DNA of 49,421 nucleotides from an uncultured Bacilli bacterium. Its GTDB lineage: Bacteria; Bacillota_I; Bacilli_A; RFN20; CAG-631. The position numbers were made by a program, and so were the translations under genes. The notes under the pieces are model-generated. The model saw nothing but the letters and a program-made list of their open reading frames with translations, was not told the DNA's origin and made no database searches. Of this stretch, positions 41,632 through 49,421 are shown in pieces. Positions within the stretch are counted from its first letter, which is position 1. Every line of letters starts with the position of its first letter. The stretch is taken from the NCBI GenBank assembly GCA_947626825.1, contig CANQTM010000009.1, positions 1 through 49,421 on the forward strand, written 5' to 3'.

Positions 41632-42072
41632 ATGAAGAAACATATTTTATGGCTATTTTTATCATTTACTATGCTTAGTTGTCAAAATAATAAATTAAGC
41701 ATTAACTCAATTACAAAGGAGAGTACAGAACAAATGAATGATAATATTAGTTTGATATTAAATTCACAAACATATCAAATTAAATTAGAAAATAATGACA
41801 CAGTAAATCAACTAATATCTATGTTGCCATTGACTATAGAAATGAACGAATTAAATGGCAATGAAAAATATTGTTATTTGGATACTACATTAACAGTTAA
41901 TCCAATTAAAATAAAAAACATTACTAAAGGTGATGTAATGATTTATGGAACAAATTGTTTAGTTATTTTTTATAAATCATTTGCAACGCAATATTCTTAT
42001 ACTAAAATAGGACATATAGATAATTTTGTTGAATTAGATAATAGCAATATAAAAGTAACATTTACAAAATAA
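41632..42072 (+). CDS. Cyclophilin-like-fold lipoprotein
   Basis: 146 aa. The N-terminus is a lipoprotein-type signal ending MLSC (Cys17), with a slightly atypical lipobox. The mature part matches the bacterial cyclophilin-like domain (Cyclophil_like): LPLTIEMNELNGNEKYCYL, then GDVMIYGTNCLVIFYKSF and the SYTKIGHID element. These proteins have the cyclophilin barrel but often lack the catalytic Arg, and activity is not established. It is coupled to the six-TM gene (no gap) and is the last gene before the CRISPR locus; its stop codon touches the tracrRNA terminator on the other strand. Confidence 0.85.
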   Translation: MKKHILWLFLSFTMLSCQNNKLSINSITKESTEQMNDNISLILNSQTYQIKLENNDTVNQLISMLPLTIEMNELNGNEKYCYLDTTLTVNPIKIKNITKGDVMIYGTNCLVIFYKSFATQYSYTKIGHIDNFVELDNSNIKVTFTK

Positions 42073-42091
42073 AAAAACATCTTTCGATGTT
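42070..42091 (-). terminator. Terminator of the tracrRNA
   Basis: On the minus strand AACATC, GAAA, GATGTT then seven T: a 6-bp stem with a stable GNRA-type loop and a strong T-run. On the plus strand it may weakly end the lipoprotein transcript. Confidence 0.88.
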
Positions 42092-42166
42092 TAGATGACA
42101 ACAAATTTGTCTGAGATTTAGAATAATCTTTATTTGAACTCGAATGTTAATTAGGTAGTAATTAAC
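42071..42166 (-). ncRNA. tracrRNA of the type II-A system
   Basis: About 96 nt, read on the minus strand. Its 5' part is the anti-repeat: UUAAUUACUACC, UAAUUAACAU and the lower-stem UUCAAAU, which pair with the CRISPR repeat as an upper stem (with one bulged U on the repeat side), an internal bulge and a six-pair lower stem against GUUUGA. Then come a nexus hairpin (AGATT, ATTCTA, AATCT; 42114-42129), a second hairpin (GACAA, ATTTG, TTGTC; 42097-42111) and the terminator hairpin. This is the expected II-A order. The 5' end is estimated from the promoter. The RNA lets Cas9 and RNase III mature and use crRNAs. Confidence 0.93.
42134..42162 (+). promoter_or_regulatory. Weak candidate promoter of the cas operon
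   Basis: TTGAAC, 17 bases, AGTAAT, each a 4/6 match, predicting a start near 42169. It lies inside the anti-repeat DNA and points away from the tracrRNA promoter. No better plus-strand promoter is visible before cas9. Confidence 0.3.
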
Positions 42167-42203: not shown

Positions 42204-45200
42204 ATGGAAAAAAAGCAATTATTAGGTTTAGATGTGGGAACAGATTCGGTTGGATGGTGTTTAACAGATGAAAATTATAATGTAATAAAAAGAAGCGGAA
42301 AATCTCTTTGGGGTGTTCGTTTATTTGAAGAAGCGAAAGATTGCAAAGAAAGAAGAAGTTATCGTTGCGGGCGCAGAAGACTTCAAAGACGCAAAGAAAG
42401 AATAATTTTATTGCAATCACTTTTTATTGATGAAATAAATAAGGTTGATAAAAGTTTCTTTCAAAGGTTAGAATTAAGTAAATATCATTTTGAAGATCGT
42501 TCTTCATATTTTGATACGCCTCAAACACTATTTATTGATAAAGATTTTAATGATAAAAAATATTATCATGAATATCCAACAATTTATCATTTAAGAAAGC
42601 ATCTATTAGAAAGCACTCAAAAAGAAGATATTCGTTTAATTTATCTTGCATTACATCATGCTATAAAATATCGTGGTAATTTTTTACTTGCTGGACAAAA
42701 ATTTAATGTTTCTGATGTTAATGATTTAGAAGGATATTTTGCCAAATTAAATGAAATATTAAACGCATTAGCTAAACCTAATATTCCTTTTTCTATTTCT
42801 ATCTACAATGATGCCATTAAACCAATAATTGAAAAAAATTGTACCATCACTATTTTAAAAGAATGCTTAAAAACAAATTTGCCAACAACAGATAAATATA
42901 TAGAAAAAACATTATATAGTTTAATAGCAGGTTCTGAAGTTAATATTAAAGATCTTTATGAACTTGAAGATGGCGATGAAGAAGATTTACCAATTAAAAA
43001 ACTTTCTTTTAATAATCCAGAATTCGATGTTAATTTTGAAACTATCAAAGGAATTTTTCATGATAATAAAGAAGAATATTCAGAAATAATTTTATGCTGC
43101 AAAGGAATTTATAATTTTATTAAATTAGGAAGCATTCTTAAAGGCGAAAAATATATTTCATATGCAATGACAAATAGATATGATAATCATAAAAAACAAT
43201 TAAAAACATTTAAAAAATTTATTAAAGATAATTATGACCATGAAGTATATGATAATATTTTTAGAAAAGTAGGCGATGAAAATAATTATCCAAAATATGT
43301 AGGATTTAATAGAACAAATAATTGCGGTGAAAGATTTGCAAAATGTAATAAAGAAGAATTTTATAAATTTTTAAGAAATAAATTAAATTTAAAAAAAGGT
43401 CAAGAAACAGATAACCCCTATTTAAATGAAATTAATAAACTTATGGAATCAGGAGATTTCTTAGATAAACAAAATTCAACTGATAATGGTATTTTTCCAT
43501 ATCAAATGAATTTAATTGAAATAGAAAAAATCATTGATAATCAATCTTTATATTATCCATTTTTTAATGAAATAAAAGATTCTTTAAGTGTTAAAGACAA
43601 GATAATTGCTATTTTAAAATATCAAATACCTTATTATATTGGACCTTTAGGCAAAGATAGTAAATATGGTTGGGCAGTAAGAAAAGATAATGATTCAAAA
43701 ATATATCCATGGAATTTAGATAAAGTTATTGATTTTGAAAAAACTGCTGAAGTTTTTATTACCAAAAATTTAAATCGTTGTACATATTTAATGGATGAAT
43801 TTTGTTTACCAAAAAATTCTATTCAATATAGCGCTTTTAATTTATTAAATGAATTAAATAAACTTTTTATTAATGGCAGTAATATTACATATGATCAAAA
43901 AATAGATATAATTAATAATCTATTTATTAATTCAAGTAAAAAAGTAAATAAAAAATCTTTACAAGATTATCTTAAATGTAAATATGGTAATGATGCCACT
44001 ATCACCATTTCATTAGATAAAGAATTAGAAGAAGTTAAATCAAATTTAAATTCATATAATACTTTTGTTGGAATTTTTGGCAAAGAATATGTAAATTCAA
44101 ATATTCATTTGATTGATCAAATTATTAGAGATATAACAGTATTTACAGATAAAAAGATTTTGGAAACTAGATTAAAAAAACAATATGGAATTACCGATAA
44201 AGAAATATTGAGAAAAATTCAAACTTTAACTTATTCTGATTATGGTCGTTTATCTGAAAAATTATTAACAGGTTTAAAAACAAAAGTTATTGATTCTAAT
44301 ACAGGTGAAGTGTTTGAAAAAAGTATTTTGAAATTAATGCTTGAAACAAATAAAGTTTTTATGGAAGTAATTAATGATAAAAATTATGATTTTTTAAAGC
44401 AAATTGAAGATGCTTCATTAAAAGAAAATGATGATCAAACAATTGAAGAATATGTTGATAATTTATATGTAAATCCAACAATGAAAAGAGGTATTATTCA
44501 AAGTTATAAAATTATTGAAGAATTAAAGAAAATTACTAATAAACCTATTGATGAATACTATGTTGAAGTTACAAGAAGCAATCAAGCAAAGAAAGAAAGA
44601 AAACTAAGTAGAAGAGAACACTTAATTCAACTTTATAATGAGGTTTTAAGAACTTGCAAAGATGAAATAAATTCTGAATATAAAGATTTTATTAATTCAG
44701 GAATTGAAGATTTAAAGAAAAAATCTGATTCTGAATTAAGAAGTGACAAATTGTATTTATATTATATTCAATTTGGTCGTTGTATGTATTCTAATAAGCC
44801 AATTTCTTTAAAAGATTTATTTAATAGCCATGTATGTGATATTGATCATATTATTCCTCAATCAAAAGTCAAAGATGATAGCCTTGAAAATAGAGTTCTT
44901 GTTTTGCTTGAATATAATCGTCGTAAAACAGATGAATTTCCTATTCCACAAAACATTTTATTTGATGGGCATAAGGCCTTTTATGGTATGTTAAAAAAGA
45001 ATTCTTTTATTGGTGAAAAGAAATACCATAATTTATTAAGAAAAGATGATTTGTCTGATGCTGAATTAAGTCAATTTATTAATAGACAATTAGTTTCAAC
45101 AAATCAATCAGTTATAGGTTTAATTGATGTTATTAAACATTTTGAAAAAGTAGATGATACTAAAGTTATTTTTTCAAAAGCCGAAAATGTTAGTGATTAT

Positions 45201-46403
45201 CGAAAAAAATATGATATTTTAAAGTGTCGTGAAGTAAATGATTTACATCATGCTCAAGATGCCTATTTAAACATTGTTGTTGGAAGAACTGTTAATAGTT
45301 ATTTTGGTTACCGTGGAGATCCAGAAAAATATAAAGAATTGCATAAAGAAAAGAAAACAACAAATATTAAAAAAATTTATGAATATAATGTTTATCGAGG
45401 AAATTCCTTAATTTATGATTCTAATAAAACACTTATTCAAGTTAAAAAACAATTATCTTCAAGATATGATATGTTAGTAACAACTAGACAATATGTTGGT
45501 AATACTTTAATGGAAAAAATATCTATTAAACCTAAACAAGAAGGTTTATTTCCTTTAAAAACAGATAGCGTTTTTGCTAAAACCGAAAAATATGGTGGAT
45601 ATAATGATCTTGCAAATGGCTATTATTGTTTGGTCAAATCTATAAATAAAAAAGGTAAAGAAATTATTACTATTGAAGCAATGCAAAATGTTTATGTTCC
45701 TCCATATTGTTCAAAAGAAAAGAAAATTGAATATTTAATAAATGTTAAAAAATTAAACAATCCAGAAATTTTAAATGAATTATTAAGAATCAATACTGTA
45801 ATAAAAGATGGCTATAAAAAATATTGTATTACAGGAAAAACCAATGATTCATTTGTGATCAAAAACTTGAATCAAGTAATTTATAAATCAAATGAAGTTA
45901 CATTATTTAAAAAAGTGTCTAAACTTCAAAATGAATGTCTTCAAAAAAGAATAACTCTTGTTAGTAAAAACGGTGATGATAAAATATCTGAGGAATTTCC
46001 TATTATTAACAATGAATATATTTTAGTAAGTCCATCTTCAAATGAAAAAACTTCTGAAATAAAAATTGATAATGAAGAATTGCTTAAAATGTATGATATT
46101 ATCATAGAAAAATTAAATAAAGACATTTTAATTAATTATTCTATTTTAAAATCAATAAAAGAAAAATTAGAATCAAATGAAATAAGAAATCAATTTAAAT
46201 CGTTATCAATGTATGAAAAATCTTATACTATTTTAGAAATGCTTAAATTAACAAAATGTAATAGGGAATTATCAGATTTATCTTTAATTTCTTTAGGTAA
46301 GACATCAGGGACTTTAACAATTTCTAAAACCATTACATCATCAATGCAAATTGTCAATGAGTCTATAACAGGATTTTATAAAAAAGTCATAAAGGTAAAA
46401 TAG
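42204..46403 (+). CDS. cas9: CRISPR-associated nuclease Cas9 (type II-A)
   Basis: 1399 aa, in the size class of S. pyogenes Cas9 (1368). RuvC-I has Asp10 in GLDVGTDSVGW; the Arg-rich bridge helix spans about 50-75; RuvC-II has Glu788 in YYVEVTRSNQ; HNH has CDIDHIIPQS with catalytic His882; RuvC-III has HHAQDA with Asp1019. The rest is the recognition lobe (about 80-730) and a PAM-interacting C-terminus (about 1110-1399). All nuclease residues are present, so it should cut both strands. GGGGG lies ten bases before the ATG. cas1 follows with no gap. The PAM cannot be read from this window. Confidence 0.99.
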   Translation: MEKKQLLGLDVGTDSVGWCLTDENYNVIKRSGKSLWGVRLFEEAKDCKERRSYRCGRRRLQRRKERIILLQSLFIDEINKVDKSFFQRLELSKYHFEDRSSYFDTPQTLFIDKDFNDKKYYHEYPTIYHLRKHLLESTQKEDIRLIYLALHHAIKYRGNFLLAGQKFNVSDVNDLEGYFAKLNEILNALAKPNIPFSISIYNDAIKPIIEKNCTITILKECLKTNLPTTDKYIEKTLYSLIAGSEVNIKDLYELEDGDEEDLPIKKLSFNNPEFDVNFETIKGIFHDNKEEYSEIILCCKGIYNFIKLGSILKGEKYISYAMTNRYDNHKKQLKTFKKFIKDNYDHEVYDNIFRKVGDENNYPKYVGFNRTNNCGERFAKCNKEEFYKFLRNKLNLKKGQETDNPYLNEINKLMESGDFLDKQNSTDNGIFPYQMNLIEIEKIIDNQSLYYPFFNEIKDSLSVKDKIIAILKYQIPYYIGPLGKDSKYGWAVRKDNDSKIYPWNLDKVIDFEKTAEVFITKNLNRCTYLMDEFCLPKNSIQYSAFNLLNELNKLFINGSNITYDQKIDIINNLFINSSKKVNKKSLQDYLKCKYGNDATITISLDKELEEVKSNLNSYNTFVGIFGKEYVNSNIHLIDQIIRDITVFTDKKILETRLKKQYGITDKEILRKIQTLTYSDYGRLSEKLLTGLKTKVIDSNTGEVFEKSILKLMLETNKVFMEVINDKNYDFLKQIEDASLKENDDQTIEEYVDNLYVNPTMKRGIIQSYKIIEELKKITNKPIDEYYVEVTRSNQAKKERKLSRREHLIQLYNEVLRTCKDEINSEYKDFINSGIEDLKKKSDSELRSDKLYLYYIQFGRCMYSNKPISLKDLFNSHVCDIDHIIPQSKVKDDSLENRVLVLLEYNRRKTDEFPIPQNILFDGHKAFYGMLKKNSFIGEKKYHNLLRKDDLSDAELSQFINRQLVSTNQSVIGLIDVIKHFEKVDDTKVIFSKAENVSDYRKKYDILKCREVNDLHHAQDAYLNIVVGRTVNSYFGYRGDPEKYKELHKEKKTTNIKKIYEYNVYRGNSLIYDSNKTLIQVKKQLSSRYDMLVTTRQYVGNTLMEKISIKPKQEGLFPLKTDSVFAKTEKYGGYNDLANGYYCLVKSINKKGKEIITIEAMQNVYVPPYCSKEKKIEYLINVKKLNNPEILNELLRINTVIKDGYKKYCITGKTNDSFVIKNLNQVIYKSNEVTLFKKVSKLQNECLQKRITLVSKNGDDKISEEFPIINNEYILVSPSSNEKTSEIKIDNEELLKMYDIIIEKLNKDILINYSILKSIKEKLESNEIRNQFKSLSMYEKSYTILEMLKLTKCNRELSDLSLISLGKTSGTLTISKTITSSMQIVNESITGFYKKVIKVK

Positions 46404-47586: not shown

Positions 47587-48242
47587 AAGAACTTCGTTAC
47601 CAAAAAATTGATTATTCTTTTCAAATAAATAATAGTATATGCAATTATTTGGTTATAGAAAATCCCAAATTGTTTACTTCTTTTTTAAATGATCTGTATA
47701 CTTTAAATCAAGAAATGTTTTTTCTATTAGATAATGAAAAGATATTGGATATAAAGAAAAATATTTTTATTATTGAAAATATTTTAACTCTTGATATAAA
47801 TAGTAAAAAAAACATTTCTTTATTCTATGACGATTTAGTAAAAAGTAATCAAGATATTGAAATGCTAAAAAATATTGAATTAGTCAACATGCAACTTTCT
47901 AAAATTATATATGATATCAAATTAAATTCATCATTAGAAATAACTATGAAAGAAGTAATAAATCTTCAAGATATTCTTCAAATGTATGATGTGAAAATTG
48001 ACATAGAAAACACATCATTATTAGAAAAAATTGTTATTTATTTAAAATTAGTAAACATTATATTTAAACCAAGTGTAATTTTTATACCATTTTTAGATTC
48101 TTTTTTAGATGATATACAATTAAAAAGTTTATTAGATGAGGCAAAGATATTAGAAATTTGCTTATTTATAGTTAGTTCAAGCGATAAAAAGTTAAATAAT
48201 ATTCATAAAATTATAGTTGATAATGATTTGTGTGTAATATAA
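47583..48242 (+). CDS. csn2: CRISPR adaptation protein Csn2
   Basis: 219 aa, matching the short Csn2 form (S. pyogenes 220). Csn2 forms a tetrameric ring around free DNA ends and is needed for spacer capture; its presence defines subtype II-A. The sequence is divergent, but the size, the position after cas2, the internal long-helix region (about 95-145) and the IIFKPSVIFIPFLDSFLDD element (about 160-178) support it. Overlaps cas2 by four bases (ATGA). Last cas gene; the leader follows. Confidence 0.93.
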   Translation: MKELRYQKIDYSFQINNSICNYLVIENPKLFTSFLNDLYTLNQEMFFLLDNEKILDIKKNIFIIENILTLDINSKKNISLFYDDLVKSNQDIEMLKNIELVNMQLSKIIYDIKLNSSLEITMKEVINLQDILQMYDVKIDIENTSLLEKIVIYLKLVNIIFKPSVIFIPFLDSFLDDIQLKSLLDEAKILEICLFIVSSSDKKLNNIHKIIVDNDLCVI

Positions 48243-48329
48243 AATATAAATGGGTGCTACCTAATTAATAACTAGAAAAAGTATTGCATTCAAAAGCCTT
48301 GTTTCGAAATTTGATGTTTGAAGTTTGAG
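48243..48329 (+). promoter_or_regulatory. CRISPR leader
   Basis: 87 bp between csn2 and the first repeat. Its last seven bases before the repeat are AGTTTGAG-like, so GTTTGAG occurs twice in a row across the junction; this resembles the ATTTGAG leader-anchoring site known from other II-A loci. It also holds an anti-repeat-like element: CTACCTAATTAA at 48257-48268 (identical to the tracrRNA anti-repeat core) overlapping TTAATAACTA at 48265-48274 (complement of the repeat 3' half). No convincing promoter is visible. Confidence 0.8.
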
Positions 48330-49420
48330 GTTTGAGAGTGATGTTAATTTAGGTAGTTATTAAACAGTTTTTCAAAAAATATTATAATAGTTATAGTTTG
48401 AGAGTGATGTTAATTTAGGTAGTTATTAAACATGAAAAGATAATGGAACAACATTAGAAGTGTTTGAGAGTGATGTTAATTTAGGTAGTTATTAAACTGC
48501 TGTTAGTGTTAACTAGCTTATTAAAGCGTTTGAGAGTGATGTTAATTTAGGTAGTTATTAAACAAAATATATTATATCATGGAATAATTATCCGTTTGAG
48601 AGTGATGTTAATTTAGGTAGTTATTAAACTATCATTTATAACAATGTCTAAAGAATCAGTTTGAGAGTGATGTTAATTTAGGTAGTTATTAAACCTGATA
48701 GAGTTAGCATGGGAATGCAAGCAGGTTTGAGAGTGATGTTAATTTAGGTAGTTATTAAACTGCTGTTAGTGTTAACTAGCTTATTAAAATGTTTGAGAGT
48801 GATGTTAATTTAGGTAGTTATTAAACATATTTTATCAGTAAAACAATAAAAATAATGTTTGAGAGTGATGTTAATTTAGGTAGTTATTAAACTATTATGA
48901 CTCATTTTGTTACTCTGAACGTGTTTGAGAGTGATGTTAATTTAGGTAGTTATTAAACCAAGTAAATCATTTAAAGTTAAATTTTTCGGTTTGAGAGTGA
49001 TGTTAATTTAGGTAGTTATTAAACCAGCGCGATATTCGCGGGCGCTCACATAGCGTTTGAGAGTGATGTTAATTTAGGTAGTTATTAAACATTTTTAAGG
49101 CTTTAAAATTGTTGTTAATTGTTTGAGAGTGATGTTAATTTAGGTAGTTATTAAACCCGACTAATGCTCAATTTGTTTTTGGTTCTGTTTGAGAGTGATG
49201 TTAATTTAGGTAGTTATTAAACCTAATTCAGCCATTTTAAGTACTTTGTCATGTTTGAGAGTGATGTTAATTTAGGTAGTTATTAAACAACTAGAAGAGG
49301 AGAATGAACAATGAAAAAGTTTGAGAGTGATGTTAATTTAGGTAGTTATTAAACCATTTTTAACTTTTTTTGGCTTTTTAATAAGTTTGAGAGTGATGTT
49401 AATTTAGGTAGTTATTAAAC
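48330..49420 (+). CRISPR. Type II-A CRISPR array, 17 repeats, cut by window end
   Basis: Repeat length 36 bp, beginning GTTTGAGAGTGATG and ending GTTATTAAAC; all 17 copies are identical, with the first at 48330 and the last at 49385. Sixteen spacers: 15 of 30 bp and one (spacer 5, 48630-48658) of 29 bp. The final repeat is undegenerate and one more base follows at 49421, so the array probably continues. Leader and cas genes lie on the left, so new spacers enter there. The 5' GTTTGAGAG matches the tracrRNA lower stem, so crRNAs are read on the plus strand. Spacers 3 and 7 share 28 of 30 bases; spacer 11 is strikingly GC-rich. Confidence 0.99.
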
Positions 49421-49421
49421 T

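What the first reader, a model, noticed from the sequence alone, without database searches (positions are those of the whole stretch)
48257..48274. Anti-repeat mimic inside the CRISPR leader
The leader plus strand carries CTACCTAATTAA, identical to the core of the tracrRNA anti-repeat. It shares that RNA's one-base deletion relative to the exact complement of the repeat. The element runs on into TTAATAACTA, the exact complement of repeat bases TAGTTATTAA. The two pieces are in permuted order. If the leader is transcribed, this RNA could pair with the first repeat or compete with tracrRNA; alternatively it is the remnant of a second tracrRNA or an inverted repeat. The shared deletion argues for descent from the tracrRNA rather than from the repeat.
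Basis: partly seen in the sequence, partly recalled or inferred. Interest (0 to 1): 0.65.

Follow-up and report, generated by a model that had tools for sequence, protein, structure and literature searches.

The report
Leader RNA pairs with first repeat
The short element in front of this Cas9 CRISPR array is a built-in complement of the array's own repeat; it probably folds the start of the array's RNA onto the first repeat so that no useless guide is made there, a control already known from related systems, seen here in a new lineage and with an unusual rearranged pairing.

Summary
CTACCTAATTAATAACTA lies at 48257-48274, about 5 nt after a predicted leader start site, in a complete type II-A locus. 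Its 12-mer occurs only twice in the 1.84-Mb genome: here and in the tracrRNA. The best explanation is a leader-repeat pairing element, as described for II-A systems by Liao et al. 2022, and not a tracrRNA remnant. In the closest relative (L066, Cas9 61% identical) the homologous leader keeps 14-15 pairs to a different repeat; two pairs change on both sides and three on one side. That leader follows its repeat, not its tracrRNA. Across 29 dereplicated II-A systems, leaders pair with their own repeat much better than with swapped ones (-18.4 against -12.5 kcal/mol; 0 of 20,000 permutations). Likely function: a leader-R1 hairpin that disfavours tracrRNA binding to R1, blocking the extraneous crRNA. 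The permuted second piece (TTAATAACTA) sits in a block that L066 shares, but L066's repeat does not match it. In folding it lets the leader clamp both repeats around the newest spacer (A' to R2, B' to R1), whatever the spacer. This clamp rests on one genome and on approximate energies. It is a new member of a known kind. Transcription and function were not tested.

The parts
48257..48268 (+). A': distal leader anti-repeat CTACCTAATTAA, complementary to repeat positions 15-27 with one bulged repeat base (48256 G adds a G-U pair with position 28)
   Evidence: Sequence; unique with the tracrRNA copy in the genome; preserved by compensatory changes in L066
48265..48274 (+). B': TTAATAACTA, exact complement of repeat TAGTTATTAA (positions 25-34); overlaps A' by TTAA; part of the block TAATAACTAGAAAAAG shared with the L066 leader
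   Evidence: the match to the repeat is absent in L066
48286..48301 (+). Proximal leader arm (GCATTCAAAAGCCTTG), pairs with the leader end and the 5' half of R1 (GGTTTGAG...GATGT) to form the core leader-R1 hairpin
   Evidence: MFE and centroid structures; same element class in relatives
48217..48245 (+). Promoter-like TTGATA-17-TAAAAT; predicted transcription start about 48252, just 5' of the element
   Evidence: Consensus scan, 10 of 12; a consensus match only
48323..48329 (+). Leader end GTTTGAG, like the leader-anchoring motif ATTTGAG of type II-A (Group 1)
   Evidence: Sequence; motif in PMC5382924
48330..48365 (+). R1, first repeat (would give the extraneous crRNA)
48396..48431 (+). R2, second repeat, which matures the newest spacer's crRNA; predicted partner of A' in the two-repeat fold
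48330..49421 (+). CRISPR array, 17 repeats of 36 nt, running to the end of the contig
   Evidence: the window is contig C9 of the assembly
42068..42166 (-). tracrRNA (approximate ends): anti-repeat with CTACCTAATTAA at 42147-42158, ending in a hairpin followed by a T run
   Evidence: Best duplex to the repeat, -26.4 kcal/mol; promoter TTGACA-18-TATCAT at 42202-42173
42204..46403 (+). cas9
   Evidence: TIGR01865
46404..47276 (+). cas1
   Evidence: TIGR03639
47263..47586 (+). cas2
   Evidence: TIGR01573
47583..48242 (+). csn2, defines type II-A
   Evidence: TIGR01866, above cut-off

Best explanation
The element is the distal arm of a leader-repeat RNA structure. Transcription starts just upstream (predicted about 48252). 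In the pre-crRNA, leader 48286-48301 pairs with the leader end and the 5' half of R1. A' (48256-48268) pairs with repeat positions 15-28, forming one long hairpin with R1 and a leader-side bulge. This makes R1 costlier for tracrRNA to bind than R2. It should suppress the useless extraneous crRNA from R1 and favour the crRNA of the newest spacer. Once R2 is transcribed, A' may move to R2 while B' (48266-48274) holds R1. Shown here: complementarity, conservation by compensatory change, own-repeat specificity and predicted folds. Inferred: transcription, blocking of tracrRNA, and the effect on immunity.
For: Type II-A locus with csn2 and tracrRNA. In L066 the homologous, anchored leader pairs 15 of 15 columns with its own diverged repeat and the window 14 of 15; two columns change on both sides (positions 19, 27) and three on one side. 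Crossed duplexes drop from -15.5 and -22.0 to -9.0 and -7.3 kcal/mol. TAATAACTAGAAAAAG is exact in only 2 of 279 order genomes, both times in this leader. Own against swapped pairing over 29 dereplicated systems: -18.36 against -12.51, z -9.6, 0 of 20,000; distal leader alone z -8.1. Leader+R1+S1+R2 folds at z -3.5. With leader+R1, opening R1 costs 19.9 kcal/mol against 13.1 without 48257-48274 and 7.0 without a leader; L066 23.0 against 11.6. With R2 present, opening R1 costs 16.0 and R2 10.5. Pairing is stronger on the transcribed strand (Wilcoxon p 0.011, 21 of 29). A class-level clade shows the same two-part hairpin with a leader bulge and matched repeat changes: TTTGTTAAA with TTTAACAAA, TTTGCTAAT with ATTAGCAAA. 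Published precedent is described in PMC12080349 and PMC13187072.
Against: No expression data. Only one close relative carries the locus; the other three genomes of the family lack csn2. The window's own distal pairing alone is only p about 0.017. With both repeats present, the model pairs A' with R2 (0.96), not R1, and the element then raises the cost of opening R2 more than R1, which is not what pure R1 blocking predicts. Higher cost at R1 than R2 is also seen with swapped leaders (52 of 55), so that asymmetry is not specific. For the distal arm alone the strand preference is not significant (p 0.28).
Confidence: 0.82

Rival explanations
1. Permuted two-repeat clamp: the leader evolved two adjacent pieces so that B' pairs with the 3' part of R1 and A' with the middle of R2, enclosing the newest spacer in one nested structure that controls processing of both repeats.
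For: MFE and centroid. A'-R2 0.96 and B'-R1 0.69 over all 16 native spacers; 0.91-0.92 and 0.75-0.83 with random spacers. The permuted order is the one needed for nesting. A 10-nt chance match has p about 0.004. Published work mentions possible leader contact with the second repeat. Several other systems also put the distal arm on R2 in folding.
Against: L066 shares the B' block but its repeat does not match it. A'-R1 and A'-R2 differ by only about 2.6 kcal/mol, set largely by approximate multiloop energies. R1 is transcribed first. Pairing to the 3' part of R1 is rare among the 55 systems.
Confidence: 0.2
2. Remnant or copy of a second tracrRNA.
For: 12-base identity including the shared one-base deletion.
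Against: In L066 the leader element follows the repeat (score 15), not the tracrRNA (score 7). Leaders across the order match their own repeat. No tracrRNA-like sequence follows the 12-mer.
Confidence: 0.03
3. DNA element: an inverted repeat or protein site used in spacer acquisition or transcription, with no role as RNA.
For: TAATAACTAGAAAAAG is conserved in sequence between the window and L066, more than pairing alone needs.
Against: For adaptation in S. thermophilus the last 10 nt of the leader plus the repeat suffice (PMC5382924), and the element is over 50 bp upstream. Compensatory and wobble-compatible changes track the repeat. Pairing is stronger on the transcribed strand (whole leader).
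Confidence: 0.07
4. Chance complementarity in AT-rich DNA.
For: The 12-mer match alone is weak, and the distal pairing has p 0.017 in this leader alone.
Against: Conserved with compensation in L066; general over 29-55 systems.
Confidence: 0.03

Closest known systems
Leader-repeat RNA structure of type II-A CRISPR-Cas9 arrays (Liao et al. 2022, Nat Microbiol 7:530-541; read here only through PMC12080349 and PMC13187072)
   Same: Type II-A; leader complementary to the first repeat; predicted hairpin that competes with tracrRNA; possible contact with the second repeat
   Different: New lineage. The distal arm is a long anti-repeat separated from the proximal arm by a bulge, and in this genome a second, permuted piece fits the 3' part of R1. 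No functional data here
Leader-repeat hairpin of type VI (Cas13) arrays (PMC13187072)
   Same: Leader RNA pairs with the first repeat to block the extraneous crRNA
   Different: No tracrRNA; different effector; described there as convergent
tracrRNA anti-repeat
   Same: 12 identical bases; both complement the same repeat
   Different: No promoter-anti-repeat-terminator unit in the leader; the leader arm follows the repeat rather than the tracrRNA in L066
Type II-A leader-anchoring DNA motif ATTTGAG (PMC5382924)
   Same: Lies in the same leader
   Different: It is at the leader end (48323-48329), not at the element, and acts in spacer integration

Membership tests
Type II-A leader-repeat RNA structure | Array belongs to a type II-A system with tracrRNA | tested here: met
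   csn2, cas9, cas1, cas2; tracrRNA duplex -26.4 kcal/mol
Type II-A leader-repeat RNA structure | Leader upstream of the first repeat is predicted to form a helix with R1 | tested here: met
Type II-A leader-repeat RNA structure | Pairing maintained in relatives despite repeat change | tested here: met
Type II-A leader-repeat RNA structure | Leader is transcribed with the array | tested here: inconclusive
   Promoter-like site with start about 48252; no RNA data
Type II-A leader-repeat RNA structure | Structure hinders tracrRNA at R1 and favours the first crRNA | tested here: inconclusive
   Opening costs R1 16.0 and R2 10.5 kcal/mol, but swapped leaders show the same asymmetry; no experiment
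tracrRNA (second copy) | Anti-repeat followed by nexus and terminator hairpins | tested here: not met
   Leader continues as TAACTAGAAAAAG...; no terminator-like site in the leader
tracrRNA (second copy) | Closer to the tracrRNA than to the repeat complement in relatives | tested here: not met
   L066: 15 for the repeat complement, 7 for the tracrRNA
II-A leader-anchoring adaptation motif | Located in the last about 10 nt of the leader | tested here: not met
   The element ends 55 nt upstream of R1

The most novel reading that the evidence does not exclude
The permuted A'B' order is selected. The leader RNA clamps the two repeats around the newest spacer at once (B' on R1, A' on R2), so that processing of the first crRNA is gated by a single nested structure that works with any spacer.
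Probability: 0.2. Interest if true: 0.5.

Novelty: new member of a known kind. Interest (0 to 1): 0.38.

Why it matters
It extends the leader-RNA control of crRNA production to a lineage where I found no report of it. It also gives comparative support for pairing as the selected property, through compensatory changes and an own-against-swapped test on 29 dereplicated systems. The leader can be read straight from sequence as a second anti-repeat that tracks the repeat. If the two-repeat clamp is real, it would give a concrete structure for the proposed contact between leader and second repeat.

Tried and rejected
Second-tracrRNA remnant: rejected on L066 and on the absence of downstream tracrRNA features. 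DNA-only inverted repeat: disfavoured by strand asymmetry and compensatory changes, though for the distal arm alone the asymmetry is not significant. Rfam scan of the locus: no hits. Search for a nearer relative by leader DNA in the family: none; genome contigs gave only a 31% Cas9 relative. The original Liao et al. 2022 paper is not held. Asymmetric opening cost of R1 over R2 was tried as a specific signature and dropped, because swapped leaders show it too.

Full report
Observation. The window ends in a type II-A CRISPR-Cas locus: cas9, cas1, cas2, csn2, then an 87-nt leader and an array of 36-nt repeats, GTTTGAGAGTGATGTTAATTTAGGTAGTTATTAAAC, running to the contig end. The element CTACCTAATTAATAACTA is at 48257-48274 as stated. 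Its first 12 bases occur only twice in the 1.84-Mb assembly: here, and in the tracrRNA anti-repeat on the minus strand at 42147-42158. TTAATAACTA is the exact complement of TAGTTATTAA in every repeat. The shared one-base deletion and the permuted order are both real. A promoter-like pair at 48217-48245 would start the transcript about 5 nt before the element; this is a consensus match only.

Is it more than chance? The 12-mer by itself is not striking in such AT-rich DNA, and the distal leader's pairing with the repeat is matched by 1.7% of shuffled leaders. The case rests on comparison. I collected 55 type II-A leader-array junctions from the same order and class. Each leader was scored against every repeat. 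Leaders pair with their own repeat at -18.36 kcal/mol on average and with swapped repeats at -12.51 (29 systems whose repeats differ at 9 or more positions; 0 of 20,000 permutations as good; z -9.6). Leaving out the leader end and the first ten repeat bases still gives z -8.1.

Closest relative. L066 (Cas9 61%, Cas1 77% identical) has the leader GATATTTTATTTAATAACTAGAAAAAG, homologous to the window's GCTACCT-AATTAATAACTAGAAAAAG. The block TAATAACTAGAAAAAG is exact in only two of 279 genomes of the order, both times in this leader. With that block as anchor, 15 columns can be compared. All 15 pair in L066 and 14 in the window. Two columns change on both sides (repeat position 27, G-C to U-A; position 19, U-A to A-U), three change on one side and stay paired, and one is a bulge in the window. 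Crossing leaders and repeats weakens the duplex from -15.5 and -22.0 to -9.0 and -7.3 kcal/mol. This is the pattern expected if RNA pairing between leader and repeat is selected.

tracrRNA origin. In L066 the leader element resembles the complement of the repeat (alignment score 15) much more than the L066 tracrRNA anti-repeat (score 7). The shared deletion in the window is therefore better read as both RNAs adjusting to the same repeat; both are one base shorter than their L066 counterparts while the repeats are equally long. Nothing like the rest of a tracrRNA follows the element.

Structure. With leader and R1 only, the element pairs with R1 and continues the hairpin made by the proximal arm 48286-48301, leaving a leader-side bulge. 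The same two-part plan with a bulge appears in a class-level clade (L081, L082, L084, L097), where the distal arm changes with the repeat: TTTGTTAAA with TTTAACAAA, TTTGCTAAT with ATTAGCAAA. Opening R1 then costs 19.9 kcal/mol, against 13.1 without 48257-48274 and 7.0 without a leader. With R2 present, the model instead pairs A' with R2 (0.96) and B' with R1 (0.69), averaged over all native spacers, and similarly with random ones. The permuted order is exactly what nested pairing with two successive repeats requires. The preference of A' for R2 is about 2.6 kcal/mol by these probabilities, within the error of multiloop energies. B' is not matched by L066's repeat although the block is shared. 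So A' as an anti-repeat is well supported; the two-repeat clamp is an open, single-genome possibility.

Mechanism. Published work on type II-A systems (Liao et al. 2022, not held; described in PMC12080349 and PMC13187072) shows that the leader RNA forms a hairpin with the first repeat, interferes with tracrRNA hybridisation there, blocks the extraneous crRNA and speeds maturation of the newest spacer's crRNA, possibly through the second repeat. The present element fits this. The steps shown here are complementarity, its maintenance, and the predicted energies. Transcription, tracrRNA blocking and the effect on immunity are inferred. Higher opening cost at R1 than at R2 is seen in the window (16.0 against 10.5) but also with swapped leaders, so it is not counted as specific evidence.

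Verdict. The finding is real, with an interpretation better than the one first offered. It is a new member of a known kind, with one unusual feature (the permuted second piece) worth a direct test.

Noticed in passing
48498-48527 and 48761-48790: Spacers 3 and 7 are nearly identical (TGCTGTTAGTGTTAACTAGCTTATTAAAGC and ...AAAAT), differing only at the last bases, as if the same target site was acquired twice or a unit was duplicated.
   Followed up: no
49289-49318: Spacer 15 (AACTAGAAGAGGAGAATGAACAATGAAAAA) looks like a ribosome-binding site and start codon of a target gene.
   Followed up: no
48266-48281: The leader block TAATAACTAGAAAAAG, mostly in the bulge between the two pairing arms, is more conserved with L066 than pairing explains; it could be a separate site, or a bulge that keeps the hairpin from being a long RNase III substrate.
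   Followed up: partly
48300-48329: The leader end has tandem GTTTGA-like copies and an extra small hairpin (TTTCGAA...TTTGAAG region) of about 20 nt that L066 lacks.
   Followed up: no
L052 and L053 (leaders): Two genomes with identical repeats have otherwise diverged leaders that keep the anti-repeat AAATAACACT.
   Followed up: partly
L062 (G027:C2:4789-5646): Cas1 reading frame is reported with an in-frame TAA, possibly a decaying adaptation module.
   Followed up: no
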